A stretch of DNA of 64,000 nt. It comes from Alloalcanivorax dieselolei B5. GTDB lineage: Bacteria; Pseudomonadota; Gammaproteobacteria; Pseudomonadales; Alcanivoracaceae. Every line of letters starts with the position of its first letter. Position 1 is the stretch's first letter. Location: positions 3,038,001 through 3,102,000 of the forward strand of contig NC_018691.1 of assembly GCF_000300005.1 (NCBI RefSeq). Direction: 5' to 3'. The translations under genes and the position numbers were made by a program. Below are positions 28,131 to 52,188 of the stretch, one piece after another. A model generated the notes under the pieces. That model was not told the DNA's origin. It ran no database searches and saw nothing but the letters and a program-made list of their open reading frames with translations.

Positions 28131-30089
28131 ATGAGCAGCCGTGACGATGACCGATTCCGCGTTCGGCCTGGTGCGCCGAAGCAGCGTGGCGACGCCTTCA
28201 TCAACAAGGTGCTACGCCAGGCCGACAAGGCCGGCGCGAAGCTCGATAAGACAACCGGCAAGGTCGGCCAGCGACCCGGTTCACGGTTGGGCCGCGGCCA
28301 TGTGGCGGCGCGCTTTGCCGGTCAGGGACTTGGGGCGAATGCCCGGCGAGTGACGATCAAGGTCCGGTTGGTGAATCTGGCGAAGGCCGGCCCGCGTTCG
28401 ACCGCCTCACATCTGCGCTACGTCGAACGCGAAGGCGTCGATCGCCAGGGCGGGTCGGGTCACGCCTACGGGTCGACGACCGACGATGCCGACCTCGAAG
28501 CGTTTAAGGAGCGCGGCGCGGACGACCGCCACCAGTTCCGGTTCATCGTCTCGCCGGAGGATGCCGAACAGCTCGACGATCTGCGTACCTACACCCGGCA
28601 CTTGATGGCGCGCATGGAGGCGGACCTAGGCACGCGCCTGGAATGGGTTGCAGTCGATCATTGGAATACGGACAACCCGCACACGCATGTCGTCTTGCGC
28701 GGTAAGGATGACACCGGCAAAGACCTCATCATTTCCCGCGACTACATTGGCGAGGGGATGCGCCGGCGTGCGTCGGAGCTGGCGACCGAATGGCTGGGGC
28801 CGCGCACCGAACTGGAGATGCAGCACGCCATGCAGCGTGAGGTGGAACAAGAGCGGTGGACGGGCTTGGATCGCAGCTTGCAGCGAGAGGCCGGCAACGA
28901 CGACCTGGTGCGCGTCGAACGCTTCACCGAACCCCGATTGCAACGCCAACGGCAGGCGCTGATCGGCCGCCTGCAACGCTTGCAGCGCATGGGGCTGGCG
29001 ACCGAGCAGCAGCCCGGCGCATGGGCCATCCATGCCGAGGCCGAGCCGACCCTACGGGCGATGGGCGAGCGTGGCGACATCATCCGAACTATGCAGCGGG
29101 CGATGAGCGGCAAGTCCCGCGAGCTGGCCGTGTTCGAGCAGGGCAACGACGGCCGCACCCTCATCGGCCGGGTGGCGGGCAAGGGGCTGGCCGACGAGCT
29201 GTACGACAAGGGCTATCTGATTGTCGATGGCACCGACGGCAAGGCGCACTACGTTGCGCTGCCGCCGCGGTCGGAGCTGGAGCAGTACCCGACCGGCGCC
29301 GTGGTGGAAGTGAAAGGCGCTGCCGACGTGCGCGCCACCGACCGCAACATCGCGGCACTGGCCGTCGATGGCGTGTACCGTACCGATCATCACCTGGCGC
29401 TCGCCCAAGGTCAGGCCACGTCTGACCGCGATCCGCGCGAGGTGGTGGCCGCCCATGTTCGCCGGCTCGAAGCTCTGCGCCGCGCCGGCATCGTAGAGCG
29501 CGAAGCCGAAGGCGTCTGGCATGTGCCCGGCGACTTGGCCGAGCGGGGTCACCAGTACGACGCACAGCGCCTAGGTCCTGTGGCTGTGGAGCTGAAATCG
29601 CACCTACCCATTGAGCGGCAAACCCGCATCATCGGCGCTACCTGGCTCGACCAGCAGTTGGTCGGTGGCGGCAAGGGGATTGGCGTTTTGGGCTTTGGTG
29701 CCGAGGTCAAGGACGCGCTGCGGCAGCGCGCTGACTTCCTGACCGAACAAGGACTGGCCGAGCATCGCGAGCAGCGCATCGTGCTTGCCCGCAATCTGTT
29801 GGCGACGCTGCGCGGGCGCGACCTGGCGCAGGCTGCGAAGGACATCGCTATTGAAGCTGGTCTAGAACATCGGCCGGTGGCAGACGGGCAGCGCGTGGCC
29901 GGAATCTATCGGCGTAACGTCATGCTCGCCAGTGGGCGTTACGCGATGCTCGATGACGGCATAGGTTTCTCGCTGGTGCCTTGGAAGCCAGTGATCGAAC
30001 AGCGACTGGGTCAACAGCTAGCCGCCACGGTACGCGGCGGTAGTGTGTCTTGGGAGATCGGACGCCAACGCGGGCCTGCAGTTGGATAG
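28131..30089 (+). CDS. traI: Relaxase TraI/VirD2-like (DUF3363)
   Basis: 652-aa relaxase that would nick oriT and pilot DNA transfer. The N-terminal nuclease domain has the HxH metal motif in NPHTHVVLRG (His184, His186); the rest is the DUF3363 region. The ATG at 28131 gives the usual MSSRDDDRFRVRPG start; the frame is open further upstream but that part has no similarity. The last 100 residues (RDLAQAAKDIAIEAGLEHRP to the end) recur as three broken copies downstream. Confidence 0.92.
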   Translation: MSSRDDDRFRVRPGAPKQRGDAFINKVLRQADKAGAKLDKTTGKVGQRPGSRLGRGHVAARFAGQGLGANARRVTIKVRLVNLAKAGPRSTASHLRYVEREGVDRQGGSGHAYGSTTDDADLEAFKERGADDRHQFRFIVSPEDAEQLDDLRTYTRHLMARMEADLGTRLEWVAVDHWNTDNPHTHVVLRGKDDTGKDLIISRDYIGEGMRRRASELATEWLGPRTELEMQHAMQREVEQERWTGLDRSLQREAGNDDLVRVERFTEPRLQRQRQALIGRLQRLQRMGLATEQQPGAWAIHAEAEPTLRAMGERGDIIRTMQRAMSGKSRELAVFEQGNDGRTLIGRVAGKGLADELYDKGYLIVDGTDGKAHYVALPPRSELEQYPTGAVVEVKGAADVRATDRNIAALAVDGVYRTDHHLALAQGQATSDRDPREVVAAHVRRLEALRRAGIVEREAEGVWHVPGDLAERGHQYDAQRLGPVAVELKSHLPIERQTRIIGATWLDQQLVGGGKGIGVLGFGAEVKDALRQRADFLTEQGLAEHREQRIVLARNLLATLRGRDLAQAAKDIAIEAGLEHRPVADGQRVAGIYRRNVMLASGRYAMLDDGIGFSLVPWKPVIEQRLGQQLAATVRGGSVSWEIGRQRGPAVG

Positions 30090-30112
30090 ACTCCTACACG
30101 CCACACTCTACC

Positions 30113-31012
30113 TCAGGGGCACAAACGCCGCTTCAGTTCGTCTAGTAACCACCGCCCGGCGACCCCAGGAGCATGGTCGCGTCGATGGGCTGCATAGATC
30201 GTCACTCCATCACGAGGGGTTGGATCGTTTTCAATCTCGATACGAGCTAGATGTCCGGCAGCAATGGGATCGCTGACGAGATGGCCGGGCATACGGCACC
30301 ATCCAAGGCCTGCAAGAAGAAAATCCGAGCGCCTCCCGAGATCGACGAAGCGCCACAACTTGGCGCTTGATAGCCCATAAGATGCACCGCCGGGGTCAAC
30401 CGGGTCAGAGAGCACGAGTTGGGTATGCGATTCAAGATCGCTTCGCGTTGCCGGCCTTCCAAGTGAGGCCAGTGGATGTTCGGGCGCGACGACCGGGATC
30501 ATCTCAATGCGCAGCAGGGGATATGCGACGACGTCCTCGGGTACGGCGGGAAGTAGCAGGCAAATGGCCAGCGCGGCAGAATCATTGCGCAGACGACGCA
30601 GGGCACCACCAAGACCCTCTGTCCTGAAGCTGACGGGAAGGTCGGGATAGCTGCTGCGCAGCGCGTGCAGGCTATCGATAAGCGGTGCGGTCGGCACCAG
30701 TGGATCAATCGCAAGAGCGAGTTCGGCTTCCAGTCCTGCCCGGTTGCTTGCCGCAACTGCCTCGAAGCGCGCTGCGCTGGCCAGCACTAGGCGCGCCTGC
30801 TGGACAAGTACTTGTCCAATATCCGTGAGTTGCGGTCGATGACCGCTTCGGTCGAACAGTCGGACGCCTTGCATCTCCTCAAGGGTGGCGACCGCTTGGC
30901 TGACGGCCGATTGAACACGACGAAGCTTCCGGGCCGCAGCCGAAAAGCTACCCATGTCCGCAATTGTCACCAACACACGCAGGTGATCCAGGCTAAGAGT
31001 GCCAAGCGCCAT
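30113..31012 (-). CDS. LysR-family regulator of the dioxygenase-azoreductase unit
   Basis: 299-aa LysR regulator: N-terminal winged HTH (LDHLRVLVTIADMGSFSAAARKLRRVQSAVSQAVATLE) and a C-terminal effector-binding domain. It begins 75 bp from the divergent dioxygenase gene and ends 24 bp from the relaxase stop, so it faces traI. Probably activates dioxygenase and azoreductase genes in response to a quinone or phenolic ligand (inferred from neighbours). Confidence 0.9.
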   Translation of the reverse strand: MALGTLSLDHLRVLVTIADMGSFSAAARKLRRVQSAVSQAVATLEEMQGVRLFDRSGHRPQLTDIGQVLVQQARLVLASAARFEAVAASNRAGLEAELALAIDPLVPTAPLIDSLHALRSSYPDLPVSFRTEGLGGALRRLRNDSAALAICLLLPAVPEDVVAYPLLRIEMIPVVAPEHPLASLGRPATRSDLESHTQLVLSDPVDPGGASYGLSSAKLWRFVDLGRRSDFLLAGLGWCRMPGHLVSDPIAAGHLARIEIENDPTPRDGVTIYAAHRRDHAPGVAGRWLLDELKRRLCP

Positions 31013-31087
31013 GCATCATATAATGAGATGGAAAGTATCTAAATTATATCACTTTTCAAGATGTTCGGCCGCCCCCAATATCTGTGC
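31013..31087. promoter_or_regulatory. Divergent LysR/dioxygenase promoter region
   Basis: AT-rich intergenic stretch with ATATAAT and ATTATAT as an inverted repeat (about 31018-31050). This suits overlapping divergent promoters and a LysR binding site. Confidence 0.4.
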
Positions 31088-31879
31088 ATGCAACCAACAT
31101 TTTTCCTCAACCACGGCGGCGGCCCTTGCTTCTTTCTTGAGCCCGGCCCGGTGCGCGCCGACTGGAACGAGCTAGAGGCGTATCTGATGAATTTCGCCAG
31201 CACACTGTCGGAACGTCCGTCCTCTATCCTTGTCGTCTCTGGACACTGGGAGGAGGTGCGTCCGACCGTAAATGTAGGCGCTGCCCCATCTTTGCTTTTC
31301 GATTACGACGGGTTTCCCGACTACACTTACCAACTGACATGGCCTGCCCGCGGCGCACCAGAGCTTGCGACCCGTGTCCGCGAATTGCTCGGTGCCGCTG
31401 GCGTGGCAAGCGCCGTAAATGACCGACGCGGCTGGGATCACGGCGTGTTCGTCCCTCTGAAGGTCATGTTTCCGACCGCTGACATTCCCGTCCTGCAGCT
31501 TTCGATGCAGCGCGGACTTGACCCGTCTGCCCACCTCGCTATTGGTCGCGCTTTGAAGCCGCTGCGCGACGAGGGCGTGCTCATCGTCGGCAGCGGGCAG
31601 GCCTACCACAACATGCGTGGCTTTTCGGGATATGGTCGCTCGGACCCTGGCGCAGAAGCATTTGACGCCTGGTTGCGTACTGCGATGCTGGATGGCGCCA
31701 CTCGCGATCGCGCGTTGATGCACTGGGAACAAGCTCCCGGTGCGCGCGATGCTCAGCCCCACGAAGACCACTTGCTTCCGCTGATGGTCGCCGCCGGGGC
31801 GGCGTCCGGCAAACCGGGACATATCGACTTTCATGGCCAAGCGATTGGAAAGCCTATATCCGGCTTTCGCTTCGGCTGA
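31088..31879 (+). CDS. LigB-type extradiol dioxygenase (DODA/YgiD-like)
   Basis: 263-aa class III extradiol ring-cleavage dioxygenase of the DODA/YgiD group. It starts [21 protein letters not shown], with the metal-ligand His region, then [24 protein letters not shown] and [10 protein letters not shown], and ends with [15 protein letters not shown]. The ATG at 31088 places the HGGGP motif at the N-terminus as in the family. It probably acts on catecholic substrates; partner azoR lies 29 bp downstream. Confidence 0.88.
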
Positions 31880-31908
31880 CATCCACCTCGGCAATCGAAG
31901 AGATTTCC

Positions 31909-32523
31909 ATGACCAAACTACTAGTTGTTGAAACCAGTCCTCGCGGCGATTCTTCCATATCGCGCAACATGACGCGCCACTTCGTGGCGCATTGGCAGGC
32001 CGCACACCCGGACAGTGAGATCGTTGAGCGCGATCTTGCGAAAACAGATCTTGCCTTCATCACGGCGCCTTGGTTGCAGGCATACTTCACGCCGCCCGGG
32101 GAGCAATCGGCCGAAATGAAGGAAGCGTTGCACCTCTCCGATGAACTGGTCGCCGAACTGCTGGCCGCTGACGAAATCGTCATTTCCACTCCGGTGCACA
32201 ACTACAACATCCCAGCCTCGCTCAAGGCTTGGGTCGATTACATCGTGCGCAAGGGCATGACACTGGGCTTTGACGGTAAGGGTATGGTCAGCGGCAAAAA
32301 GGCCACTGTGTTGCTGGCATCCGGCGGCGTGTACACCGAAGGTTCACCCATCCGCGATCGCGACATCGCACGGCATTACTTGAATTTGATCCTCAGCGTG
32401 ATCGGGATCACGGATGTGACGATCATCGCGGGTGGCGGCGCCAAGGTGGTCGATCTTGGCGAAGAGTCGATGAATAGTTTCATCGGGAAACTTGACTCCA
32501 GTCTCAAGCAAGCGGCCGCCTGA
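31909..32523 (+). CDS. azoR: FMN-dependent NADH-azoreductase
   Basis: 204-aa flavodoxin-fold quinone/azo reductase. Family marks are [20 protein letters not shown] (FMN phosphate loop), [27 protein letters not shown] and ASGGVYTEG. Such enzymes reduce quinones by two electrons and protect against thiol-reactive compounds. It is cotranscribed with the dioxygenase under the LysR gene. Confidence 0.92.
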
Positions 32524-32584
32524 AACCACCCGCTGCCCGACATGGAAAATCCGGGCGGTCTGGCGTGCAGATCAAATATATCCA

Positions 32585-32923
32585 GGGGCTGTCGTAGATA
32601 AGGCTAAATTCCAGCCCACTCCTTCAGCGTCTTGAGTTGTTGTTTGTGGGCTCCGTAGTCGAAGCGGAGCTCGCATTCTTAGAGGAACAGAGGGAAGTTG
32701 TCCTTTGGGATTCCATTATATTTGCGAAGTACCCGCCTAGCCTGGTTCCAGAAGTTCTCGACGTTGTTGATGTGGTTGCGGCCACGGGCGAACTCCTTGG
32801 AGTGGTTGATGCGAACGTGGTGGAACTGACTGACGTCCAACGCCTCATAGCTGCCGAAGCTGTCGGTATAGACGATGCTATCCGGTGCCATTTTCAGCTG
32901 GATTGCTGGCACCAGTGTGGGCC
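32585..32923 (-). pseudogene. IS1595-family (ISXO2-like) transposase remnant
   Basis: The C-terminal third of an ISXO2-like transposase is readable leftward: SIVYTDSFGSYEALDVS, HHVRINHSKEFARGRNHINN and NFWNQARRVLRKYNGI, ending LKTLKEWAGI at a stop (32604). A nonsense TAA replaces a Lys codon near 32690. The IS end (GGGGCTGTCGTAGATAAG) begins about 32585. The 5' part is lost at the junction with the relaxase-tail copy. Confidence 0.8.
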
Positions 32924-33234
32924 GCGCATTGTTATCGCGCGCAATCTGCTGGTAACCCTGCACGAGCGAGAGATGGCGCAGGCCGCGCAGGACATCGCAG
33001 ATGAAACAGACTTGGAGCATCGTTCCGTGGTCGATGGGCAGCGCGTGACTGGCCTTTACCGACGCAGTGCCATGCTTGCCAGCGGGTGCTATGCGATGCT
33101 TGATGACGGTATGGAGTTCATGCCTGGTGCCGTGGAAGCCGGTGATCGAAGCGCGACAACTGCATACTGTCACGGTGCGTAGCAATGGCGTGTCATGGGA
33201 CATTGGACGGCATCGCGATCCGGTCGTTGTATAA
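32924..33234 (+). pseudogene. Second copy of the traI 3' end
   Basis: About 100 codons homologous to the end of traI (from relaxase residue about 548): RIVIARNLLVTLHEREMAQAA, DLEHRSVVDGQRVTGLYRRS, LASGCYAMLDDGM. One extra base near 33123 shifts the frame, after which VPWKPVIEARQL and SWDIGRHR can be read to the TAA at 33232. It is a diverged homolog, not an exact duplicate. It begins at an IS1595 remnant and is followed by the ISL3 element. Confidence 0.85.
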
Positions 33235-33275
33235 TAAACAGCGTGAATACACTATAATTTAAGAACCTAATTTTA

Positions 33276-34581
33276 GGTTCATCGCGGAATGCCGGAGAAC
33301 GCGGCGCGGATTTTCAGGAAGAAATACTCCTGATCCCCGTAGCCGTAAGCCCGGCGTTTGATGACCTTGATGGTGTTGTTGATGCCCTCGACGATGCTGG
33401 TGTTGAGCGGATGCCGGCAGCGGGACAGGATGCCGTGCAGGTAGACCGAAAGCCGTTGGGCAAACAGGGCCAGCGCGGCGATCCCGCTGCGTTGAGCCTG
33501 CTCAAGCCAGTGATCCCAGGCTTGCCGAGTCCAGCCCGGACGTCGGTAAAACCACAACCGCTTTAGCTCGTCGCGCATGAGATAGGCCATGAGCAGTGGC
33601 TGGTTGGCATCCAGAAGCTCGTTCAGTTGCACTGTCTGTCGGCGGTCCAGGTTTTCCCGGTTGCGCAAAAGGAGCCATCGGCTCGACTTGATGACCCGGC
33701 GTGCGGGCTTGTCCTGTCGCAGTTTGTTCGCCTGATCGACCCGGACTCGATCAATGACTTCCCGACCGTACTTGGCCACGACGTGGAACAGGTCGTAGAC
33801 GATTTCGGCGTTGGGACAGTTGGCCTTGATCTCCAGCTCGTAAGCGGTCGTCATGTCGATCGCTTCGGCGCGGATCTGGGCGGCGACTCCTTCAGGAAGC
33901 TGCTCAAAGAAGGCTCGCGCGGTGTCGCGCGACCGGCCGTTGCCCAGCCACAGCACCTGACGGCTGATCGGATCGACGACCACCGTGGCATAGCGATGAC
34001 CCTTGTGCAGGGCGAATTCATCCATCGCCAGATAGTGGATCTGGCTCCAGTCCGGTTCCTGGACGGCCTCGCGCAGGAGGGCCTTATCCAGTGACTTAAC
34101 TGTGTGCCATCCCAACTGGAAGAAGCGCGCCACGGCGAGGATATTGCTCGAAAGAAGCAACTGGCTCACCGCTTCGGCAAGCCGGTTCGTCACGCGCTGA
34201 TAGCGCCCCAACCAGCTGAGCTTCTCAAGCCGCGGGCCACCGCAGTGGTCGCACCAGACCCGTCGTCGTGGCACGACCAGGGCGACACGAAGAGCCATCA
34301 GCGGCAGATCTCGAACCCGACGAATCGTAGTCTCATGCACTTGCCTGCATCGACTGCCGCAGTGCTCGCAATACATGGTCCGCGTCGAAGGCTGGAGGAA
34401 AATGGTCACCGTCCGGCTATCGCCTTCAGGCCATGCCACTCGTTCAAGCCGATAGCCTTCCCATCCGCCTAGCTTCTCGATCGTCTTCCGATCCAGCATC
34501 ACCTTACCCTCAAGCCCGAGAGATCGAGTCTCAAAGGTATGTTGGACTACGAAAAGGCTCCACGGTTATCTGCGGAGAACC
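33276..34581. mobile_element. ISL3-family insertion sequence
   Basis: The transposase gene fills the element. The ends are related inverted repeats starting GGTTC: GGTTCATCGCGGAATGCC on the left and, read inward, GGTTCTCCGCAGATAACC on the right (outer base 34581). The flanks (TAATTTTA left, AAAAATTG right) do not form an exact 8-bp duplication. The left end completes an 18-bp palindrome (33263-33280). Confidence 0.75.
33279..34502 (-). CDS. ISL3-family transposase
   Basis: 407-aa, apparently intact ISL3 transposase. The N-terminal zinc-finger part has CEHCGSRC and CDHCGGPR; the DDE domain shows MDEFALHKGH, AIDMTTAYE and the C-terminal NTSIVEGINNTIKVIKRRAYGYG with the catalytic Glu. It could still be mobile. 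Confidence 0.9.
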   Translation of the reverse strand: MMLDRKTIEKLGGWEGYRLERVAWPEGDSRTVTIFLQPSTRTMYCEHCGSRCRQVHETTIRRVRDLPLMALRVALVVPRRRVWCDHCGGPRLEKLSWLGRYQRVTNRLAEAVSQLLLSSNILAVARFFQLGWHTVKSLDKALLREAVQEPDWSQIHYLAMDEFALHKGHRYATVVVDPISRQVLWLGNGRSRDTARAFFEQLPEGVAAQIRAEAIDMTTAYELEIKANCPNAEIVYDLFHVVAKYGREVIDRVRVDQANKLRQDKPARRVIKSSRWLLLRNRENLDRRQTVQLNELLDANQPLLMAYLMRDELKRLWFYRRPGWTRQAWDHWLEQAQRSGIAALALFAQRLSVYLHGILSRCRHPLNTSIVEGINNTIKVIKRRAYGYGDQEYFFLKIRAAFSGIPR

Positions 34582-34643
34582 AAAAATTGGCCCCGACACC
34601 TTTTTGCTGCACGTCTACAGCGCTCGCTTGGCGCTCTAACTTA

Positions 34644-35540
34644 TTAGTACGACTTCAAGTCTGGCAACGCGCGTAAGCGGGCTATGTCTCGTGCCGGCGG
34701 TTCTCCGAAGTGACGGCGATATTCGCGATTAAACTGCGTTGGGCTTTCGTAACCCACGCGGAAGGCGGCAGTGGTGACGTCGAGGTCATGAACCAGCATC
34801 AGGCTGCGTGCGTCTTGCAGTCTGAGCTGCTTCTGGAACTGCAGCGGCGTCATCGCCGTCACGGCGCGAAAATGTTCATGTAAGCTCGACGGACTCATGC
34901 CTACTTCCATGGCAAGCCGCTTGATGCTAAACGGTTCCCGGAAGTGCTTCCCGATCCAAGCGATGGCGCGTCCGACCTGCGCCACCGGACCCTGGCTGGA
35001 GACAATGTGTCGCATCCTGGCACCCTCAGTACCGGCGAGCAGGTGATACAAAATTTCCTGCTCGGCAAGCGGTCCGAGCACTGGCAGCGCAGCCGGTGCA
35101 TCGAGCAGTCGCAGCAGGCGTAACGCTGCGTCGAGTAGAGCAGCGCTGGCGTCGGACACCGTTTTGCCTATCGGCTGGGATGGCGCTCCCGGCATTGGCT
35201 GCACGCGCGCCGCCAGGTCGCCCAGCATCACCGGATCGAAATCGAGATACAGGCAGAGGTAGGGCTCGTTAGGTGTCGCCTTGACCACATGACCAACCAC
35301 CGGTAGGTCGTAGGTCACTACCCCATAGCGGCCGGGCGCGTATTTGAAGGTGTGGTCACCCAGCGTCACCTCCTTGTGTCCCTGCGCGACGAGGCATAGT
35401 TGCGGCCGGTAAACATTCGGCATCGGCATCGTCACTGTGGAGGATCGAACAAGTGTCACGCGTTCTATCAGAGTGGCATTGAAGCCATCCTTCGAGACGT
35501 TTCTTGCAATTATTTTTGCAATTTCCACTATTTTTTCCAT
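34644..35540 (-). CDS. AraC-family regulator (cupin type)
   Basis: 298-aa regulator with an N-terminal cupin-like sensing domain (AraC_N, TMPMPNVYRPQLCLVAQGHKEV) and two C-terminal HTHs (FSIKRLAMEVGMSPSSLHEHFRAVTAMTPLQFQKQLRL, then VTTAAFRVGYESPTQFNREYRRHFG). The ATG at 35540 gives the usual length. It is divergent from an aldo-keto reductase gene (175 bp), its probable target; this pairing resembles YqhC-type aldehyde-responsive control. Confidence 0.88.
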   Translation of the reverse strand: MEKIVEIAKIIARNVSKDGFNATLIERVTLVRSSTVTMPMPNVYRPQLCLVAQGHKEVTLGDHTFKYAPGRYGVVTYDLPVVGHVVKATPNEPYLCLYLDFDPVMLGDLAARVQPMPGAPSQPIGKTVSDASAALLDAALRLLRLLDAPAALPVLGPLAEQEILYHLLAGTEGARMRHIVSSQGPVAQVGRAIAWIGKHFREPFSIKRLAMEVGMSPSSLHEHFRAVTAMTPLQFQKQLRLQDARSLMLVHDLDVTTAAFRVGYESPTQFNREYRRHFGEPPARDIARLRALPDLKSY

Positions 35541-35714
35541 AGTTGAGACTATTGCATGAGTGTGCAGCCGAGGCAATTCGAACCGAGGCACTTAGAGTAT
35601 TAGGCAGCAATTTCGGCGCATTAGGCTAACGCCTGGGCGGCGGCGCACGTCACAGTTTCGGCTGCATCTGGGGCACAGCAAAGCTAGCCGCAGAACTCAT
35701 TAACCGGAGCAAAC

Positions 35715-36668
35715 ATGACCAACGGAAATCTGAAGATCCCCACGGTCGCATTGGGCACGTGGGCCTGGGGCGACAGCGGCGAGGTGGGCACTGGCTATTT
35801 CGGCAGCAGCCTCACTCAAGTCGGCCTGGAAGAAATCGCCGACAGGGCGCATACAGCCGGGTTCAGTCTCTGGGATACCGCCGTTGTGTATGGCGCTGGC
35901 CGTTCAGAGAACGTACTTGGGGAGATCCTAAAGCGCCTCGCACGCAGCGACTACCAACTCTCAACGAAGTTCACCCCGCAGGCCGCGGGAATCGGCGCCT
36001 ATCCGGTAGCAGAAATGCTAGAGCAGAGCCTTGCCCGCCTCGGCACCGACTACATCGACCTTTACTGGATTCACAATCCGGCGGACGTGCCGCGGTGGAC
36101 GCCGCACTTGATCCCGCTGTTGAAGAGCGGAAAGGTCAAACATGTCGGAGTCTCAAATCACAACCTAAGTGAAATTGAGCTTGCCAACCGAATTCTCGGA
36201 GAGGCCGGGTTTCGGGTTGAAGCCGTTCAGAACCACTATAGCCTCCTCTACCGCAGCGCAGAGCGCGCTGGGATCCTGAACTACTGCCGCAAACAGGACA
36301 TCCCATTCTTCGCTTACATGGTGCTTGAACAAGGTGCCCTGAGCGGTGGATACGGTCCGGAGAACCCGCTGCCAGCAGGTAGCAACCGCGCGGAAACGTA
36401 CAACGGCATGCTGCCTCAGTTGAAGGCACTGACGGACAAACTCGCCTTGATCGGTCAGATGCAGGGTGCAGCAGCTCCCGATGTCGCAACGGCTTGGGCT
36501 ATCGCCAAGGGGGCGACGCCTATCGTCGGCGTTACTAAGCCACATCATGTTGATGGTCTGGTCCGAGCTGGCCGGATCACGCTCAGCCCAGATGAAATTG
36601 CAGAACTAGAAGGTCTCGCCGACGCGGCTGAAGTGGACACCCGTGGCTGGTGGGAACAAAGGATGTAA
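35715..36668 (+). CDS. Aldo/keto reductase
   Basis: 317-aa NADPH-dependent oxidoreductase of the AKR fold. The catalytic tetrad areas are visible: WDTAVVYGAGRSE (Asp, Tyr), STKFTP (Lys) and DLYWIHNP (His); the cofactor end is PIVGVTKPHHVDG. Start follows CCGGAG. Substrate unknown, likely an aldehyde or ketone. The 216 bp after it carries no gene. Confidence 0.9.
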   Translation: MTNGNLKIPTVALGTWAWGDSGEVGTGYFGSSLTQVGLEEIADRAHTAGFSLWDTAVVYGAGRSENVLGEILKRLARSDYQLSTKFTPQAAGIGAYPVAEMLEQSLARLGTDYIDLYWIHNPADVPRWTPHLIPLLKSGKVKHVGVSNHNLSEIELANRILGEAGFRVEAVQNHYSLLYRSAERAGILNYCRKQDIPFFAYMVLEQGALSGGYGPENPLPAGSNRAETYNGMLPQLKALTDKLALIGQMQGAAAPDVATAWAIAKGATPIVGVTKPHHVDGLVRAGRITLSPDEIAELEGLADAAEVDTRGWWEQRM

Positions 36669-36819
36669 GCCAAGGAAGCGCCAGTCCAAGTCCTCGGCTC
36701 GCCGAAATGGAGCAACCTGCGGGACAGTTGTCTTGTATCAGGGCTGACTTCTTCCCGGGCACAGAGTGGTCGCCGGCCTTCGCATGGCCTTGAAAAGTGG
36801 GAGTACTGAAATGGTCTAG

Positions 36820-37028
36820 GGTGCGTTAACACTATTGTCAATTGAAACTGTTTCCAGGAAACTTGTTTCCAGCAAAATCCTGGCATGGGAATCACACCAG
36901 AGCAATTCGCCAAGATCGAGCACTGTCTGCCTATCCAACGCGGCAACGTCAGCTTGAGCAACCTACAGGTGGCCAACTCCATCCTGTACGTGACTGAACA
37001 TGGCCGCAGGTGGCGGAGCCTGCCCAAG
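36820..37028 (+). pseudogene. IS5-family transposase N-terminal fragment
   Basis: From 36885, MGITPEQFAKIEHCLPIQRG, then NVSLSNLQVANSILYVTEHG and RRWRSLPK match the start of IS5/IS427-type transposases. The stretch from about 36820 (AGGGTGCGTTAACAC) is probably its terminal repeat. Similarity stops at 37028, where an IS2-like element begins, so the IS5 copy was interrupted and its rest is lost. Confidence 0.75.
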
Positions 37029-37736
37029 TGGAGTTGCCCCTGCATGACCGGACACGGTCTCCCACTTAGTTAGAATTGACGTGCAGCCCTTGAGCCGACC
37101 GCCTGAACATTCTCGGCGATTTGATCTTGAGCGCCGCGTGGGCATGCACCTCGTTGTAGTGCTTGAAGGCCGAGGGAAGCTGCGCGATAGCCGATGCGGC
37201 ATTGCTGCGGTCCATCCTCCTGACGTAATCCCGTTTGAAGGTTTTGACAAAGCTCTCGGCCATGCCGTTGGATTGCGGGCTGCTGATCGGTGTGGACAGT
37301 GGCACCCTGCCGATTTCCCTGGCAAAGCGCTGCGTCTGGCGAGCCACGTAGGGCGAGCCGTTGTCTGTCAGCCATTCGATGGGCTTGGGCAGCAACCGGT
37401 CGCCGAACCTGGCCTCCACCGACTCCACATGAGGTCGCACACCATTGCCGCATCGATGCCACCTATGGTGGCCACGCAGCCAATGGCTTCGCGGTCGCAG
37501 CAGTCCAGGCTGAAGGCCACGCGCACCTTCTGCCTGTTGTCGCACGTGATCTCGAAGTCGCCGGAGCACCAGCGCAGGTAGCTGTTGTCGACCGACACCC
37601 TGCCGTTGAGTCCCCGCGTGTCTGCGGGCCTGCCGGTATGGCGCTGCAGAAGCAGGCCATGCTCGCGCATGACACGGTAAACCCGTTTGACATTGACTCC
37701 TAGCTCCCTGTTGGCCTGGCGGCGTCGGATGTGCAT
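37029..37736 (-). pseudogene. IS3-family (IS2-like) OrfB remnant
   Basis: Read leftward: RRRQANRELGVNVKRVYRVM, SYLRWCSGDFEITCDNRQKV and AFSLDCCDREAIGC, then after a frameshift near 37425, SVEARFGDRLLPKPIEWLTD, NGMAESFVKTFKRDYVRRMD and HYNEVHAHAAL. This is the rve integrase region of an IS2-type OrfB. The N-terminal part and OrfA are missing at the junction with the MFS gene. The IS end TGGAGTTGCCCC starts at 37029. Confidence 0.85.
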
Positions 37737-38878
37737 TATCTTTTTACTCGACTAAGTAACACTAGTCCGAGCAGAGCGCAGATGCCGGCCGCGAAAAAAC
37801 CGGTGCCGTAACCTCGTGCATTGATTGCCAATCCTATGGCAGGCCCGGTCAAGGCATACGAAGCGTCCTGAAAGCCTGAGTAATAGCCCATTGCCGTACC
37901 GCGTTCATGCGTACTACAACATCCTGTTGCTATTGCTCCGAGCGCGGGAAAAGTAAGTGAGCAACTACCGCCGATTATTGCGGTAGACAGTAGAGCCCAA
38001 TACTGATTAGGAGCGACCGCGAGTAGCGTTAATCCAAGGGCTTGAAAAGATAATGATGCAGCTGCTAGACGAACCAGCCCTGAGCCTTGCAATAGATGCC
38101 CCAAGCTTACTCGAATAAGCACAAACGATACGCCAAAAAGCGATAAAGCCCATGTCACCAAGGGCCAGCCCGATTGTGAAAAATAAAGTGACACGAATGC
38201 TTCAATGGAAACAAATCCCACACCATGAAGGAAAAGCACGGAGCCCGGAAGCAGCACTTTGCCAAATACTCTTGTTCCAATAGTTTTTTGCTCAGTCTTA
38301 GGTGCTATATCAGACACGCGCAACAGCGTCACGACTGGAATAATGGGCAGGGCTATGATAAGGCCCGCTACGGCTGGAAGTCCCAAATATTGGAAAATAA
38401 GGATTCCTGCAGGAGCACCGCAAGCTACCGCCCCATAGATAGATATCCCGGTCATAGAGAGCACTCTCGCCGTACTAGATTCACCGAGTTTATCGATTGC
38501 CCACATGATGGCCGCTGTGGCTAAAGTGCCGACAGCCACACCCTGTACTACACGTGCGAAAATAAGGGTCGGCACCGCAAGTTCGGAGTTGTAGGGGGAT
38601 ATGCCCAGCAAGAGCCCATAGGACATCAAACCTACTAAACTGGCGAGCACGCATCGACGCAATCCTGCTTGCAGCAACCTGCCGACAAAAATGCGGCTTA
38701 GTAGTGATGCCAGGAACTGACTGCCTATCACCAGCCCCACAATGGTGTCATCTGCCGCTAAATCCTTGGTAATGAATAGCGGCAAAGCACCTAGTGAGAG
38801 GCCAACAAGAAAAAAACAAATGATTACGGCGCATTGGATACGCGCTACGTCGAAACGGGGGGATGCGTGGGATAACAT
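37736..38878 (-). CDS. MFS transporter
   Basis: 380-aa major facilitator protein with about 12 hydrophobic segments, an intrahelical GSQFLASLLSRIFVGRLLQAG motif A-like loop after TM2 and the repeat in the second half. It is most like drug- or sugar-type exporters. No regulator is adjacent. The DNA is less GC-rich than the ICE core. Its stop touches the IS2 remnant; the C-terminus looks complete (LLSRVKR). Confidence 0.85.
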   Translation of the reverse strand: MLSHASPRFDVARIQCAVIICFFLVGLSLGALPLFITKDLAADDTIVGLVIGSQFLASLLSRIFVGRLLQAGLRRCVLASLVGLMSYGLLLGISPYNSELAVPTLIFARVVQGVAVGTLATAAIMWAIDKLGESSTARVLSMTGISIYGAVACGAPAGILIFQYLGLPAVAGLIIALPIIPVVTLLRVSDIAPKTEQKTIGTRVFGKVLLPGSVLFLHGVGFVSIEAFVSLYFSQSGWPLVTWALSLFGVSFVLIRVSLGHLLQGSGLVRLAAASLSFQALGLTLLAVAPNQYWALLSTAIIGGSCSLTFPALGAIATGCCSTHERGTAMGYYSGFQDASYALTGPAIGLAINARGYGTGFFAAGICALLGLVLLSRVKR

Positions 38879-38951
38879 TCGGGACCCTAATGCAACACAG
38901 GGACGCGAATAGACATAAGCGCGCCCTGCTAAAGTTAAGCAGTGCGCGTTG

Positions 38952-38963
38952 GTTAACGTTAAC
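38952..38963. promoter_or_regulatory. GTTAACGTTAAC palindrome upstream of the MFS gene
   Basis: A perfect 12-bp palindrome 74 bp before the MFS start codon. It could be an operator, but no regulator gene is next to it. Confidence 0.3.
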
Positions 38964-39129
38964 GCCTACGATTTCATCTTAAGCAGCTTCAAATTGAGAG
39001 CCGCTACTATGAACTCATTCAGGATACCACGTGGCCCGGCGAGTAGAAAGGCGCACGAAAACTGTCGCCGAAACGTCATCCGCAGCGATGCCGTGGGCGC
39101 TGGGCGGAGTTGTGGTAAATCTGCTGCAC

Positions 39130-39296
39130 AAGCCCATCTACAAAGCTCGATCTACGAATGACTGTCGACGGCAGCTGTATCGCATGCGCGCAGATTCCCC
39201 CTGGCGAGGCCTGTCAGAAGTTTTCAGGTCTTCGGAAGCTGGAGCAAAATCTACAAACGCTTCAACGCGTAGTTAACTCTTGCAGGTGGCCCAAGG
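39130..39296 (+). pseudogene. Degenerate IS5-family transposase fragment split by IS21
   Basis: DCRRQLYRMRADSPWRGLSEVF, then after a frameshift SWSKIYKRFNA, resembles the PWRDLP...WSKIYKRFNRW region of IS5/IS427 transposases. Codons RWPKVFKA continue after the IS21 element (42069-42090), so IS21 landed in this relic. Several frameshifts and stops make it clearly dead. Confidence 0.6.
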
Positions 39297-39480
39297 TGCG
39301 TATTTCAGCCCATCGTGGACGGCGTTTCAGGCTGATCGTGGACGCCGTTTCAACGTGATCGTGGACGGCATGTCAAACTGATCGTGGACGCTGTTTCAGC
39401 GCGATCGTGGACGATTTGGGGAGCGCGCAAGTGATCTTTTGACCGGGCGTCAAGCTCATCGCCTTTTGCGGTGAAGCCTG

Positions 39481-41031
39481 ATGCCCACGAACAGAATCAC
39501 GATGCGCCGAATCCGAGAGACATTGCGCCTGCACCTGCAGGCAGACCTGAGCTACAACGAGATCGGCCGAGCGCTCAAGATCTCCAAGAGCGTGGCGGGC
39601 AAGTACGTCTCGCTCGCCCGCGCCGCGGGCATCGACTGGGTGGTGGCTCAGACGCTCACCGACGAGGAGCTTGAATCCCGGCTGTATCGACCGGCGTTGC
39701 CCCGCTCCAGCCACCAACTCAGTCCCGACTTCGCGCTCGTCCATCAGGAACTCAAGCGCGCCGGTGTCACCCTGCAGCTGTTGTGGGAGGAGTACGCCCG
39801 CAGCCTCGTCGGGGCGGGCCAGCAGGCCTACAAGTACACGAGCTTCTGCGTGAAGTACCGGGCGTGGGCGCTCGGGCTGAAGCGGTCCATGCGCCAGACC
39901 CACATCGCCGGCGAGAAGCTGTTCGTCGACTACGCCGGCCAGACCGTTGCGCTCATCGACGCGGCCACCGGCGAGATCGCCGCCGCGCAGATCTTTGTGG
40001 CCACGCTCGGCGCGTCCAACTACACCTACGCCTGCGCCACCGCGCGTCAGACCACCGCAGACTGGATCGGCGCCCAGGTGCGTGCGCTGGAATTCTTCGG
40101 CGGCGTGCCGCGCTTGATCGTGCCCGATCAGGCCCGCGCGTTGATCAAGAGTCCAGATCGCTACGACCCCGAACCCAATCGCCTATACGACGAGTTCGCC
40201 ACCCATTACGGCTGTGCGTTGCTCGCAGCACGCCCGGCCCATCCTCGCGACAAGCCGAAGGTCGAGAACGCGGTGCTCGTGGTCGAGAGATGGATTCTGG
40301 CGCGCCTGCGCAACCGGCGCTTCTTCAGCCTGGACGAACTCAACCGGGCGATCGCCGCGCTGCTGGTCGATCTGAACCAGCGCCCCTTCAAGAAGCTGCC
40401 CGGCTGCCGGCGCAGCGCCTTCGAGACGCTGGACGCGCCCGCGCTGCGGCCACTGCCGGCCCAGCGCTTCGAGGCGTGCCTGTGGAAGAGCGCCAAGGTG
40501 AACATCGACTACCACGTCGAGTTCGACGGTCACTACTACAGCGTGCCGCACGCCCTCGTGCGCACCACCGTCGAGCTGCGCGTCAGCGCCAGCCTGGTGG
40601 AGTGCTTCGCTGCCAACCAGCGCGTGGCCTGCCATGCGCTGAGTCACCGCAAGGGCGCACACACGACCATCGCCGAGCACATGCCGGCGTCGCACCGCGC
40701 CCACCTGGAGTGGACGCCCCAGAAGCTGATCGACTGGGGCCGGCGCATCGGTGTCAGTGCGGCGGCGGTGGTGACATGGCAACTCGAACACCGCCCACAT
40801 CCGGAGCAGGGCTACCGCGCCTGCCTGGGGTTGCAGCGCCTGGCACGCGAGTACACGCCGGCACGGCTGGAGGCTGCCTGTGCCCGAGCGCTGGCGATCC
40901 GCGCGCCGACCTACCGCAGCGTCGCCTCGATTCTGAAGAACGGCCTGGACCGTCAGCCCGCCCTGTTCGCGACGACATCCACGCCGCTGCCCACGCACGA
41001 GAACGTGCGCGGCCCGGACTACTACCACTGA
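39481..41031 (+). CDS. istA: IS21-family transposase IstA
   Basis: 516-aa transposase. An N-terminal HTH ([33 protein letters not shown]) is followed by an rve integrase core: [11 protein letters not shown] (first Asp), [16 protein letters not shown] (second Asp) and [15 protein letters not shown] (Glu). It ends with the usual beta-barrel region. It appears intact. A long open frame also exists in the +3 frame of the same DNA but is a by-product of GC bias. Confidence 0.93.
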
Positions 41032-41044
41032 ACCACTGAAGGAG

Positions 41045-41788
41045 ATGACGATGCTGAATGAACACACCCTGGACCAACTGCGCAGCCTGCGCCTGGACGG
41101 CATGGTGCGCGCAATCGAGGAGCAAACTACGAGCACCGCGGCGGCCGCACTGGGCTTCGACGAGCGCCTGACCATGCTCGTGCAGCGCGAGATCGCATGG
41201 CGCGACAACAAGCGGGTGGCGCGTCTGATGAAGGCCGCCCGGTTGAAGGTCAGCACGGCCTGCGTGGAGGACATCAATTGGCGCGCGAGTCGTTCGCTGG
41301 ACCGCGCCCAGGTGGCCGCGCTGGCCGGCGGCGACTGGCTGCGAAACGCGCAGAACTTGTTGATCACCGGCGCGACGGGGTGCGGCAAGACCTGGTTGGC
41401 ATGCGCGCTGGCGCACCAGGCGGCAAGGTCGGGCTTCTCGGTCCTGTACACCCGCGCTGCGCGCCTGTTCGATGAGCTGCAGGTCGCCCACGGCGACGGC
41501 AGCTTCACCCGGCGCCTGGCGCAGCTGGCCAAGCTCGATCTGATCGTGATCGACGACTTCGCGATCTCCCCGGTCGGCGCGCCCGAGCGAAACGATCTGC
41601 TGGAGGTGCTGGACGATCGCGTGGGCACGCGATCGACGCTGATCACCAGCCAGTTGCCGGTACGAGCCTGGCACACCTACCTGGACGACCCAACCCTCGC
41701 TGATGCGATCCTGGACCGTGTCGTGCACAGCAGTCACAAGATCGAGCTCAAAGGCAAATCGCTGCGCGATGAGGAACTGATGCAATGA
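41045..41788 (+). CDS. istB: IS21-family ATP-binding helper IstB
   Basis: 247-aa AAA+ protein related to DnaC. Walker A is [11 protein letters not shown], Walker B is [10 protein letters not shown] and sensor I is [14 protein letters not shown]. It regulates target choice for IstA. The start follows GAAGGAG, 13 bp after the istA stop. Both genes look functional. Confidence 0.93.
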
Positions 41789-42095
41789 ACGCGGCGCCTG
41801 CCTCACAAGCCCGAGGGCTTGAAAACGACTTATCCACCGCGTCGGCCGGTACGTCGCAAGCGCCGTCCGCCGCCGTGGATAAGTCTGCGCCGCGACCCTC
41901 ACCAAACACCTGGAAACTCGCTTCGCGTCAGTGCGCTTCAAACTGATCGTGGACGATTGAGATACATTGAACCCCTCGCTTGCGTGCATCCCCTGCGCGT
42001 CCACGATGGCGCTGAAACAGCGTCCGCGATCAGCCTGAAACAGGCGTCCACGATCGCTGAAATGCGCACCCAAGGTCTTTAAGGCAGTCGTACCA

Positions 42096-42269
42096 GCGTT
42101 CCGTCGTGCTTGCCAGTGGGCGCTACGCAATGCTGGATGACGGAATGGGGTTCAGCCTCGCGCCGTGGAGGCCGGTAATTGAACAAAGGCTTGTCAGCTC
42201 GCCGCCACGGTTCGAGCTGGTCATGTGTTTTGGGAAATCGGTCGAGAGCCCAGTCCCAGCCTCGCATGA
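42096..42269 (+). pseudogene. Third copy of the traI 3' end
   Basis: Corresponds to relaxase residues from about 595: VVLASGRYAMLDDGMGFSLA then PWRPVIEQRL, nearly the same protein as traI although many bases differ, mostly at third codon positions. A small deletion then shifts the frame, after which QLAATVRAGHVFWEIGRE reads to the TGA at 42267. The left boundary is the IS5/IS21 junction; a small unknown fragment and the WYL gene follow. Confidence 0.85.
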
Positions 42270-42522
42270 GAGTCTTCGTACTCGGCGACCCTTCCAGGTC
42301 GGCAATCTCAGCACCGGTGTCTCGAAGGAATTGAGTGTTCCAGGTCAACCAATGCGGTAGATCCGACACCAGCGGCTCGGGCAGAAGCCTTTCGGGGCGA
42401 TGTAGGGATTGCTCTAGCAGCGCACTGGGCTTGGTCCGCCGGAGAAACAGTATCTTGACGTACGGATGCACATCGGGGGGTGGACCTAAGATGCGTATTC
42501 CGTGCGGGTTCGCATCAGACAA
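42270..42522 (-). pseudogene. Unrecognised gene fragment between traI tail and WYL gene
   Basis: A leftward frame starts MSDANPHGIRILGPPPDVHP and continues YVKILFLRRTKPSALLEQSL and GAEIADLEGSPSTKTLMRGW before running into the third traI-tail copy on the opposite strand. I do not recognise the family. It looks like an N-terminal piece truncated when the module was joined. Confidence 0.4.
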
Positions 42523-42537
42523 GCTTTAGCAATCAAC

Positions 42538-43239
42538 CTAACTTCCCGATTCCGCCCTCGCGGGCGCAAGGACGGACAAGTATTCGCGCAACAGCGCAAC
42601 GCGCCTTGGGCGAAAGCTCTTCGCCGTACTAGTCAATTCAAGGATGCGGTCAATGCGAAACATTCGGAAATCCTCGCGCAATAGGCACCAAGCCAGCACT
42701 GTCATCGCTTCGCTCGTGTACATAACCGTCAACGGAAGAATGGTGCGTTCGCTGATTGAACCGTTGCTATCCGTATAACGGATGTGGAGCGCACGTTCAT
42801 GCCAACAAGCGTGCCTGACTGTCTCGATATCCAGTTTGATCGTATAGCGAGGATTGGGCCGGTAGACCTGCGAGATGGCGTGAAACAGTTCTTGGTCGCG
42901 GCCGCGAGGCAGCATTGCGGCGATCTTTGTCAGTGCAACGTGGGCAGCGCTGGCCAAGCCGAAATCGCCGAGATGCTTAACCTCAGCCAAGCCCAGTGCC
43001 AGCGCTTCTAATTCCGTGCGATCAAATGCTTGCGGCTTCAGCGAATTGTCTTCTACTAAACAATATCCATAGCCACGCTCGCCCTCAATACGAGCCCCCG
43101 CTGCCCGCAGGCTGTCAATATCTCTGTAAATTGAGCGTAGCGATACACCTGTCTCCTCTGCTAAACGCGCACCGGTGAAGGGTGATGGCAGGTTGCGCAT
43201 CGTTTGGAGAAGTCGAAATAGACGATCGGTTCGAGCCAC
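42538..43239 (-). CDS. WYL-domain HTH regulator (YafY/DeoR type)
   Basis: 233-aa regulator: N-terminal HTH_11 (ARTDRLFRLLQTMRNLPSPF, then TGARLAEETGVSLRSIYRDIDSLR) and a C-terminal WYL domain (RALHIRYTDSNGSISERTILPL, TSEAMTVLAWCLLREDFRMFRIDRI). The GTG at 43239 gives the family N-terminus; the frame stays open upstream but overlaps the divergent gene. It is paired head-to-head (75 bp) with a VOC protein gene, its likely target. Confidence 0.88.
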   Translation of the reverse strand: MARTDRLFRLLQTMRNLPSPFTGARLAEETGVSLRSIYRDIDSLRAAGARIEGERGYGYCLVEDNSLKPQAFDRTELEALALGLAEVKHLGDFGLASAAHVALTKIAAMLPRGRDQELFHAISQVYRPNPRYTIKLDIETVRHACWHERALHIRYTDSNGSISERTILPLTVMYTSEAMTVLAWCLLREDFRMFRIDRILELTSTAKSFRPRRVALLREYLSVLAPARAESGS

Positions 43240-43314
43240 TTTGCTACTGCCGCAAACTGTCAGTAGAGGGATGGTACCGTACTCCACCTCGACAACAAAA
43301 CTCACGGAAAAATC

Positions 43315-43740
43315 ATGGCGATTGAAACTGTTGCTCATCTCAACTTTCGTGGTACCGCCGCACAGGCGCTCGCCTTCTACCAGTCTGTCTTCGAAGGGCA
43401 ACTCGTTGCTGTGACCTACAGCCAGGCCGGCGCCGTACAGGACCCTGCCGAGGCCGATCAAGTGATGTGGGGCCAGGTCACGGCCGAAAACGGCTTCGCC
43501 ATCATGGCGTACGACGTCCCCTCGCGATTGGCGTGGAGCGCGGGCGAGAATCCGTTCTTCGTCTCCGTGCGCGGCGATGCCGAAGACGAGATACGGGGAT
43601 TCTGGGACAAGCTTTCCCGAGGCTCCGCCATCGTTCAGCCGCTCGCGCCGGCCGCTTGGTCGCCGCTCTACGGCATGTTGAAGGATCGCTTCGGGGTGAC
43701 GTGGGTGCTCGACGTCGCCACTCACTATGCCGGCGCTTGA
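43315..43740 (+). CDS. VOC-family PhnB-like protein
   Basis: 141-aa vicinal oxygen chelate fold protein of the PhnB/glyoxalase-like group: VAHLNFRGTAAQALAFYQSVFEG at the start, then ENPFFVSVRGDAEDEIRGFWD and a C-terminal WSPLYGMLKDRFGVTWVLDV. Many members lack a proven enzymatic role. With the WYL gene it forms a minimal regulator-effector pair between two traI-tail copies. Confidence 0.88.
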   Translation: MAIETVAHLNFRGTAAQALAFYQSVFEGQLVAVTYSQAGAVQDPAEADQVMWGQVTAENGFAIMAYDVPSRLAWSAGENPFFVSVRGDAEDEIRGFWDKLSRGSAIVQPLAPAAWSPLYGMLKDRFGVTWVLDVATHYAGA

Positions 43741-43812
43741 CATTTATGCAATGCACCTCCACTCGCGGCGTTTTGTTTTTATACGTCGCTGACGCGAAAT
43801 CTTGCTTTTCCT

Positions 43813-44014
43813 TGCCGGCATCTACCGGCGCTCGATCATGCTCGCTAGTGAGTGATACGCGATGCTGGATGACGACATGGGATTCAGCCCAGTGCCTTGG
43901 TGACCGGTGATCGAACAACAGTTGAGACAGTGGATCGCCGCGATACGATGCGGTGACGTATTTAGGGAAGTTGGGCGACGACGTGAGCCATCCATTTGCC
44001 AACTCACACCATAG
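43813..44014 (+). pseudogene. Fourth and most decayed copy of the traI 3' end
   Basis: Matches traI from about residue 589: AGIYRRSIMLAS-like codons, then a TGA, YAMLDDDMGFSPVPW, another TGA, PVIEQQLRQWIAAIRC, and EVGRRREP reading to a TAG at 44012. Two in-frame stops make it the most degraded copy, and it is the farthest from traI. The LysR-SDR operon lies directly after it. Confidence 0.8.
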
Positions 44015-45027: not shown

Positions 45028-45147
45028 AGTGCCTATTGTTGTTTGTGGTTGAATTTACATGCCAATTTAGCACCATTTATCTCATTGGAATAAACGCAAA
45101 TAATGAGCTCCGCGGGTATGTCGCCCTCTTTCGATCCGGAGCACTCC

Positions 45148-45891: not shown

Positions 45892-45914
45892 GTCAGGCTT
45901 CCAAGGACAATTCC

Positions 45915-47328: not shown

Positions 47329-47375
47329 TCCAATTACAACCTTTCGTAGATCACTTGCCTCAAGAGGACAACACA

Positions 47376-47594: not shown

Positions 47595-47670
47595 TCCTTG
47601 CCCCGGTGCATGCATTGTCCGCCCCGGCGGGACGCATGCTCGAATACCCATCGCATCAAGGAGAAATCCA

Positions 47671-49768: not shown

Positions 49769-49781
49769 CCATATCCCGCGT

Positions 49782-50802: not shown

Positions 50803-50828
50803 ATGCGAATAGTAAACGTGAAGGATGC

Positions 50829-50844: not shown

Positions 50845-50870
50845 TGCATGCATTTTACTAGGGCTTCAGG

Positions 50871-52130: not shown

Positions 52131-52188
52131 GAGCAGGCAGCGATCTATTTTTGATAATTTTTGAATCTAAATTGAATAGGATTAATAA

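What the first reader, a model, noticed from the sequence alone, without database searches (positions are those of the whole stretch)
28131..44014. Four serial copies of the relaxase 3' end mark layers of captured cargo
Seen: the end of traI (to 30,089) recurs at 32,924-33,234, 42,096-42,269 and 43,813-44,014, all in the same orientation. Each copy runs to a relaxase-like stop codon, and new cargo follows at once. Left breakpoints differ (relaxase residues about 548, 595, 589). The copies are not recent duplicates: copy 3 encodes LASGRYAMLDDGMGFSLAPW while differing from traI mostly at third codon positions. Decay broadly grows with distance: copy 2 has one indel, copy 3 one short deletion, copy 4 two stop codons. 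Inference: cargo was added repeatedly right after traI, each event bringing or exchanging a traI 3' end from a related ICE and pushing the older end outward. The result is a readable stratigraphy of accretion and may point to a mechanism, recombination-based or site-specific, that targets the end of traI.
Basis: partly seen in the sequence, partly recalled or inferred. Interest (0 to 1): 0.82.

Follow-up and report, generated by a model that had tools for sequence, protein, structure and literature searches.

The report
Stacked relaxase tails in ICE cargo
A mobile element carries three broken leftovers of its transfer gene's end between blocks of passenger genes; related elements suggest that passenger genes are swapped by recombination at the end of this gene, leaving such leftovers as scars.

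Summary
A Tn4371-family ICE has intact traI/rlxS (28131-30089) and three decayed, same-strand copies of its 3' end: 32921-33234, ~42091-42269 and ~43814-44014. None is a recent duplicate: own traI ranks 62nd, 31st and 69th of 82 as nearest relative. PA7 and G706 share one cargo-tail joint followed by different cargoes, each also found after an intact traI elsewhere.

Mechanism: of 26 ICE pairs with near-identical cargo but diverged traI, 17 (six groups) share only traI's last 189-825 bp; L016-L027 switches again just after traR. So cargo can move by homologous recombination with the traI 3' end as left arm. I infer that an illegitimate right-hand joint adds cargo and leaves the old traI end as a scar.

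Not supported: a decay clock in the window or a site-specific mechanism. No donor was found for the window's own tails. The cargo hotspot is known; the scars and arm I did not find in print.

The parts
28131..30089 (+). intact traI/rlxS relaxase (652 aa; DUF3363 C-terminal region); its 3' end is the proposed left recombination arm
   Evidence: Pfam DUF3363 4e-152; NCBIfam RlxS model 659 bits, below that model's cut-off of 850
30090..32590 (.). cargo layer A: LysR regulator (-), LigB/DODA-type dioxygenase (+), FMN-dependent azoreductase-like (+)
32682..32918 (-). truncated IS1595/ISXO2-type transposase remnant, directly left of tail copy 2
   Evidence: Pfam DDE_Tnp_IS1595 4e-11
32921..33234 (+). 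orphan traI tail, copy 2 (from codon ~548; one frameshift, 6 nt lost)
33235..39290 (.). cargo layer B: ISL3-family transposase (-), AraC regulator (-), aldo/keto reductase (+), IS3-like transposase remnant (rve/HTH_21 domains), MFS transporter (-)
39297..42068 (.). IS21-family element (transposase 39481-41031; second gene 41045-41788, named istB by position, not scanned) with 7-bp target duplication CCCAAGG; inserted just left of copy 3
42091..42269 (+). orphan traI tail, copy 3 (from codon ~589-593; 4-nt deletion)
42270..43811 (.). cargo layer C: WYL-domain regulator (-), glyoxalase/VOC protein (+)
43814..44014 (+). orphan traI tail, copy 4 (from codon ~590; two in-frame stops)
44104..56300 (.). 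cargo layer D: LysR (-), short-chain dehydrogenases, DUF1097, DUF3861, DoxX, MFS, TetR regulators, MBL-fold protein
   Evidence: the LysR at 44104 is named from its sequence, not scanned with Pfam
56411..57355 (+). traR (LysR regulator before traG); right edge of the cargo region
   Evidence: Pfam HTH_1/LysR_substrate; homologues before traG in related ICEs; name from PMC11448139
57768..59822 (+). traG coupling protein, followed by trb/mpf genes (trb names by position and homology, not scanned)
   Evidence: Pfam T4SS-DNA_transf 2e-100
10054..11256 (+). ICE tyrosine integrase; a TTTTTCAT at 9837-9844 (-) just upstream

Best explanation
The region between traI and traR/traG of Tn4371-family ICEs behaves as a recombination cassette. 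Shown by comparison: in several independent cases the 3' end of traI travels with the cargo, so blocks of cargo were exchanged between ICE backbones by homologous recombination with the last few hundred bases of traI as left arm; in one pair the right switch lies just after traR. Shown: in several ICEs cargo regions stand in series, with scars at the joints (a truncated traI 3' end, an extra traR, or both). Inferred: a stack forms when the left end of incoming cargo pairs homologously in traI but the right end is joined illegitimately to the resident ICE within or just beyond its traI 3' end. The incoming traI end completes the working gene, the resident end is left as a short dead tail, and the older cargo stays downstream. 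The window's ICE went through at least three such joints (inferred). Also inferred: only short or diverged tails persist, because long similar direct repeats would be looped out.
For:: 48 ICE pairs share >=98.5% identical cargo over 1 kb; 26 of them have traI <98.5%. In 17 of the 26 a near-identical (about 1% mismatch or less) stretch of 189-825 bp at the 3' end of traI goes with the cargo while upstream traI diverges; they form six groups, one with weak change-point support (L044 with its own group). Among pairs with 85-95% identical 5' seven-eighths, all 15 pairs with near-identical cargo have a relatively better last eighth (median +5.0 points, lowest -0.7) than the 95th percentile (-1.9) of the 1762 other pairs (median -7.5). 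L044/L067 go from 87-94% in traI (95% in its last 250 bp) to 100% after the stop codon; L016/L027 are 97-100% from about -750 to +7000, then 86-95%, just past traR (starts +5841). PA7 (L064) and G706 (L099) share one cargo-tail joint but different cargo after the tail; both cargoes follow an intact traI elsewhere (L024/L047; L059). PA7 has two full traR genes, one inside the stack; L068 and L071 have two, L070 and L108 a second, truncated one, and in L108 it is fused to the traI tail; in ICEs with different cargo, likeness stops at the traI stop codon.
Against: No donor or intermediate was found for the window's own three tails. In 6 of the 26 pairs no near-identical 3' stretch was found despite shared cargo (6-10% mismatch), and in 3 more nearly the whole gene is shared. 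The pairs are not independent. The illegitimate step is inferred; microhomology was seen only at two internal traI deletions (L094, L099) and is minimal at the L108 joint. The AU test does not reject one clade for own traI and the three copies (p 0.31). Many orphan tails are relics in ICE remnants, so deletion alone can make a tail. The 80 loci are the best matches, not a random sample.
Confidence: 0.62

Rival explanations
1. Tandem-ICE deletion: two related ICEs sat side by side, and one deletion from the right part of the first cargo region to the traI 3' end of the second fused them. Repeated, this gives traI-A-tail-B-tail-C without any one-sided recombination.
For: L108 has truncated traR fused directly to a traI tail, and PA7 has a complete internal traR before the next cargo: right edge of one cargo region next to left edge of another. 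Tandem arrays and hybrid ICEs are terms of a paper on SXT/R391 ICEs (PMC2786100, search listing and start of abstract only).
Against: At E <= 1e-6 the window cargo holds no remnant of the ICE's other core ORFs, apart from two LysR genes only 25-39% like traR, and nothing upstream of codon ~548 is left at its three joints. Deletion alone does not explain why the traI 3' end goes with cargo in ICEs without a stack. No tandem array was found: a second, partial traI (residues 260-648) 45 kb from that of L047 has no int between.
Confidence: 0.2
2. Relics of dead ICEs: IS elements and deletions break ICE copies, and fragments that begin in the traI 3' end and carry the adjacent cargo are moved into other ICEs by transposition; the tail is only a passive label.
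For: Orphan tails outside ICEs exist: L091-L093 share one tail-cargo unit, 95-99% identical, in three genomes of three families. Copy 2 abuts an IS1595 remnant. L094 and L095/L096 join traI tails to the ICE's YhcG or int gene.
Against: All eight in-stack tails seen keep the orientation of traI: window x3, L064, L088, L090, L099, L108. IS21 beside copy 3 inserted afterwards, with its own target duplication. Cargo exchange through the traI arm is seen in sequence comparisons.
Confidence: 0.13
3. Site-specific insertion at the traI 3' end by a recombinase, as islands do at tRNA 3' ends.
For: Cargo starts at the traI stop codon in the intact ICEs; left ends of copies 3 and 4, L090 and L097 fall within codons ~589-592 (noted after the fact).
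Against: Other left ends range from codon ~417 to ~635; no tyrosine or serine recombinase among the cargo ORFs scanned; crossovers vary from 189 to 825 bp before the stop.
Confidence: 0.04
4. Recent tandem duplication of this traI's end.
For: Same orientation; one common clade is not rejected.
Against: Only 69-74% DNA identity to own traI, which is the 62nd, 31st and 69th closest of 82 intact copies, repeats included.
Confidence: 0.01

Closest known systems
Variable (cargo) region between relaxase gene and traR/traG of Tn4371-family ICEs (Ryan et al. 2009, PMC2789088; 12 'find' passages read)
   Same: Same place, same kind of varied adaptive cargo, called there a possible hotspot for insertion or recombination. 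PA7 is named in passing.
   Different: They say a Tn5-like sequence follows the relaxase gene in all their elements and suggest Tn5-mediated insertion; I see no common sequence in the 110 bases after the stop (read by eye, no Tn5 comparison made). The passages do not mention traI 3'-end copies, in-series cargo or an exchange arm inside traI.
traR-linked cargo of ICEKKS102Tn4677 (Matsumoto et al. 2024, PMC11448139; abstract, 'find' passages and first part of the discussion read)
   Same: Same module order, traI-cargo-traR-traG; oriT lies between traF and traI.
   Different: Deals with regulation by TraR; 'truncated' and 'remnant' do not occur in the text.
[quoted passage not shown] search listing and start of abstract only)
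   Same: Diversity produced by recombination between related ICEs.
   Different: Known there from tandem arrays and ICE-coded recombination functions (recalled); no relaxase-tail scars known to me.
Orphan C-terminal ends downstream of rhs and cdiA genes (recalled, no call)
   Same: Displaced 3' ends of a gene stand in series downstream of the intact gene.
   Different: There the tails are toxin domains under selection; here they are decayed relaxase ends and the cargo between is unrelated to traI.
Homology-facilitated illegitimate recombination (recalled; one search listed two papers with this term and 'integrative and conjugative', neither read, neither about ICE cargo by its title)
   Same: One end joined by homology, the other illegitimately.
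   Different: Known to me from DNA uptake in laboratory strains; here only inferred from scars.

Membership tests
Tn4371-family ICE | tyrosine integrase at one end | tested here: met
   integrase 10054-11256
Tn4371-family ICE | TTTTTCAT att sequence at the element's ends (PMC2789088) | tested here: inconclusive
   one at 9837-9844 (-) near int, but 2 matches in the window against 1.1 expected by chance; the right end lies outside the window
Tn4371-family ICE | parA, traF, relaxase (RlxS-like) in this order | tested here: met
   the NCBIfam RlxS score (659) is below that model's cut-off (850)
Tn4371-family ICE | cargo, then traR and traG | tested here: met
Tn4371-family ICE | self-transfer by conjugation | not testable with these tools
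   needs mating experiments
Recent tandem duplication | copies closest to the neighbouring traI | tested here: not met
   ranks 62, 31 and 69 of 82
Site-specific island at a gene 3' end | common crossover point and a recombinase gene in each island | tested here: not met
   varied left ends; no tyrosine or serine recombinase among 21 scanned cargo ORFs
Homologous cargo exchange with the traI 3' end as arm | cargo-sharing ICEs share the traI 3' end more than the rest of traI | tested here: met
   15 of 15 pairs above the 95th percentile of 1762 control pairs; limited near-identical 3' stretch in 17 of 26 pairs, none in 6, nearly whole gene in 3
Homology-facilitated illegitimate recombination | microhomology at the non-homologous joint | tested here: inconclusive
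   no before/after pair for the window; minimal overlap at the L108 joint

The most novel reading that the evidence does not exclude
In Tn4371-family ICEs the traI 3' end is a self-renewing docking arm. Each insertion through it rebuilds an intact traI, so the same arm is ready for the next cargo, and the displaced tail makes the cargo a block flanked by direct repeats that can be exchanged again in other ICEs, as the shared cargo-tail joint of PA7 and G706 suggests. The ICE would thus gain modular cargo without its own cassette recombinase.
Probability: 0.35. Interest if true: 0.72.

Novelty: new variant of a known kind. Interest (0 to 1): 0.52.

Why it matters
The cargo hotspot of this widespread ICE family has been known since at least 2009 (PMC2789088), with Tn5-like insertion suggested as the way in. 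Mapped crossovers inside traI and dead traI ends between cargoes give another, testable answer: ordinary homologous recombination at a conserved gene end. They also give markers (traI tails, extra traR) for finding where cargo regions were fused.

Tried and rejected
Recent duplication: rejected by identity ranks. Trees of 72 tails scatter the copies but have no power; the constrained trees scored better than the free one, and this still held for three of five tests (own with copy 3, own with copy 4, copies 2-4 together; p 0.54-0.56), so the trees decide nothing. A decay clock was not supported. IS21 as maker of copy 3's left end: rejected, its target duplication shows a later insertion beside the tail. 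Donors of the window's layers were sought in the fetched loci (all layers), in 46 genomes of the family (42040-56300 only) and in plasmids (42040-48500 only). No layer was found next to an intact traI in the first two. Of the 386 plasmid records, none of the 20 listed covered more than 40% of the query; I did not look for a traI beside them. Layers A and B were compared with fetched loci only. A tandem ICE suspected near L047 was not confirmed. Rfam (27000-58000) and tRNA scans were empty. The 2012 J. Bacteriol. paper on this ICE family (recalled) is not held. The relative age of copies 2, 3 and 4 cannot be told from these data.
Full report
What is there. The window holds most of a Tn4371-family ICE: integrase at 10054, parA, traF, the relaxase gene traI/rlxS at 28131-30089, about 26 kb of cargo, then traR (56411), traG (57768) and trb-like genes. 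The genome is one contig of 4.93 Mb. Three further copies of the traI 3' end lie in the cargo, on the same strand: 32921-33234, ~42091-42269 and ~43814-44014. Their tblastn E-values within the window are 8e-29, 4e-18 and 2e-16; the next best is 0.046. They split the cargo into layers A-D.

State of the copies. Substitutions against own traI lie mostly at third positions, which fits descent from working genes; all copies are now decayed. They keep 60 of 72, 35 of 41 and 34 of 44 conserved residues, against at least 91% in each of 68 distinct intact tails. This does not form a gradient. Own traI is not their closest relative (ranks 62, 31 and 69 of 82 intact copies), nor are they close to each other (67-72% DNA identity). 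A tree of 72 tails neither groups nor clearly separates them: AU p 0.31 for all four together.

Other ICEs. I fetched 80 loci with the best-matching traI ends. One search counted 71 loci with an intact traI and at least 9.5 kb downstream; 67 of them come (the others, L099, L108, L112 and L113, were fetched because of orphan tails or fragments). A second, truncated 3' end follows downstream in 3 of these 67: L064 (P. aeruginosa PA7), L090 (Acidovorax temperans) and L088 (Rhodanobacter thiooxydans; very decayed, right after the stop). Among the partial matches, G706 (L099) and G695 (L108) have an orphan tail downstream of an intact traI. G745 and G608 have an internal traI fragment (roughly codons 430-580) about 11 kb downstream of traI; G417 has the same fragment, but its traI is interrupted, and G427 has the fragment alone. 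Other orphan tails stand without an intact traI in the stretch fetched (L091-L098, L104-L107, L110); some of these genomes have an intact traI elsewhere. All eight in-stack tails seen have the orientation of traI.

Same cargo after an intact traI (details). Going from tail into cargo, L064 matches L024 and L047 (87.8% and 86.2% over 4.15 kb), where the same cargo follows an intact traI. L099 matches L059 (76%; offsets 34 and 135 bp) and, 1.2 kb off, L079. L104 matches L044 and others (97.7-98.8%; L080 and kin 77%). L098 matches L033 (85% over 0.64 kb). L108 matches L070 weakly (71% over 0.64 kb). For L105 the same cargo lies 2.3 kb away from traI in L039 and L049. For L090, L091-L093, L094, L095/L096, L097, L106, L110, L115 and the window's copies no such match was found.

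A shared joint with different outsides. PA7 and G706 share about 2.2 kb of cargo X and the joint of X to traI codon ~417, with some changes from other traI in common next to it, yet continue into different cargoes Y and Z. PA7's tail is a patchwork: its middle is closest to G706's intact traI and its end to L024, an ICE that carries Y. PA7 also has, between traI and X, another cargo with a complete traR and the following small gene, while a second traR and traG follow Y. So two cargo regions stand in series in PA7, and the one next to traI is absent from G706.

How cargo moves. In the intact ICEs different cargoes begin right after the traI stop codon. Ryan et al. report a common Tn5-like sequence there; I see none in the 110 bases shown, but made no comparison with Tn5. 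Pairs with near-identical cargo are informative: 48 pairs share >=98.5% over 1 kb, 26 of them with traI below 98.5%. In 17 of the 26 a near-identical stretch at the 3' end of traI goes with the cargo and upstream traI diverges: L044 group with L067 189 bp (six pairs); L044 with its own group 336 (five pairs, weak); L045/L046 348; L022 with L029/L030 383; L051/L055 416; L016 with L027/L034 825. In 3 nearly all of traI is shared and in 6 no near-identical 3' stretch was found. As control, for pairs with 85-95% identical 5' seven-eighths, the last eighth is 7.5 points worse (median) in the 1762 pairs without near-identical cargo and 5.0 points better in the 15 with it; all 15 exceed the controls' 95th percentile. 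The pairs are not independent. In L016/L027 identity drops again near +7000, just after traR. In the other five pairs profiled the right-hand switch is unclear or outside the stretch held.

Scars on the right side. Of 43 intact loci with a traR in view (>=58% identity, same strand), 4 have two: L068 and L071 complete, L070 and L108 with the inner one truncated; L108 had been fetched because of its tail. In L108 the truncated traR is fused to the last 18 codons of traI.

Interpretation. Shown by comparison: in several cases the traI 3' end is inherited with the cargo, and cargo regions are sometimes put in series with scars at the joints. Inferred: scars arise when the left end recombines in traI and the right end is joined illegitimately within or near the old traI end, or when two ICEs are fused by deletion; the present data do not decide between these for the window. 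The tails are short (about 18-236 codons), which may reflect loss of longer repeats by recombination (inference). Left ends scatter over codons ~417-635; four fall at ~589-592, an after-the-fact observation that I cannot explain.

Novelty. The cargo hotspot itself is known (PMC2789088, passages; PMC11448139, abstract and passages). I found no description of traI tails in the cargo, or of the traI end as exchange arm, in the listings of searches and the passages read of two papers; these cover open papers only, and a 2012 comparison of this family (recalled) is not held.

Noticed in passing
L091 8160-12452, L092 5362-9604 (-), L093 9665-13907: One orphan traI tail plus 4.2 kb of cargo and 1.36 kb upstream is 95-99% identical in three genomes of three families without an intact traI match: a tail-headed cargo unit that moves outside the ICE.
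   Followed up: partly
window 42091-42100 and 43814-43820; L090 13454; L097 9155: Left ends of four orphan tails fall within about four codons (589-592); two internal traI deletions (L094, L099) join at the same place, with short repeats.
   Followed up: partly
window 44104-48500: Pieces of layer D have counterparts, 68-77% DNA identity and in the same order, at 1695320-1697947 (-) of the same chromosome.
   Followed up: no
L064 12601-13808: PA7's ICE contains a second complete traR with the following small gene inside its cargo.
   Followed up: yes
L095 8833-9671 and L096: The ICE integrase gene is fused in frame to the last ~52 codons of traI, an internal ICE deletion seen in two genomes.
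   Followed up: no
window 42274-42522 (-): Open frame of 83 aa that runs into tail copy 3 antisense; no Pfam match; perhaps a gene cut at the traI end.
   Followed up: no
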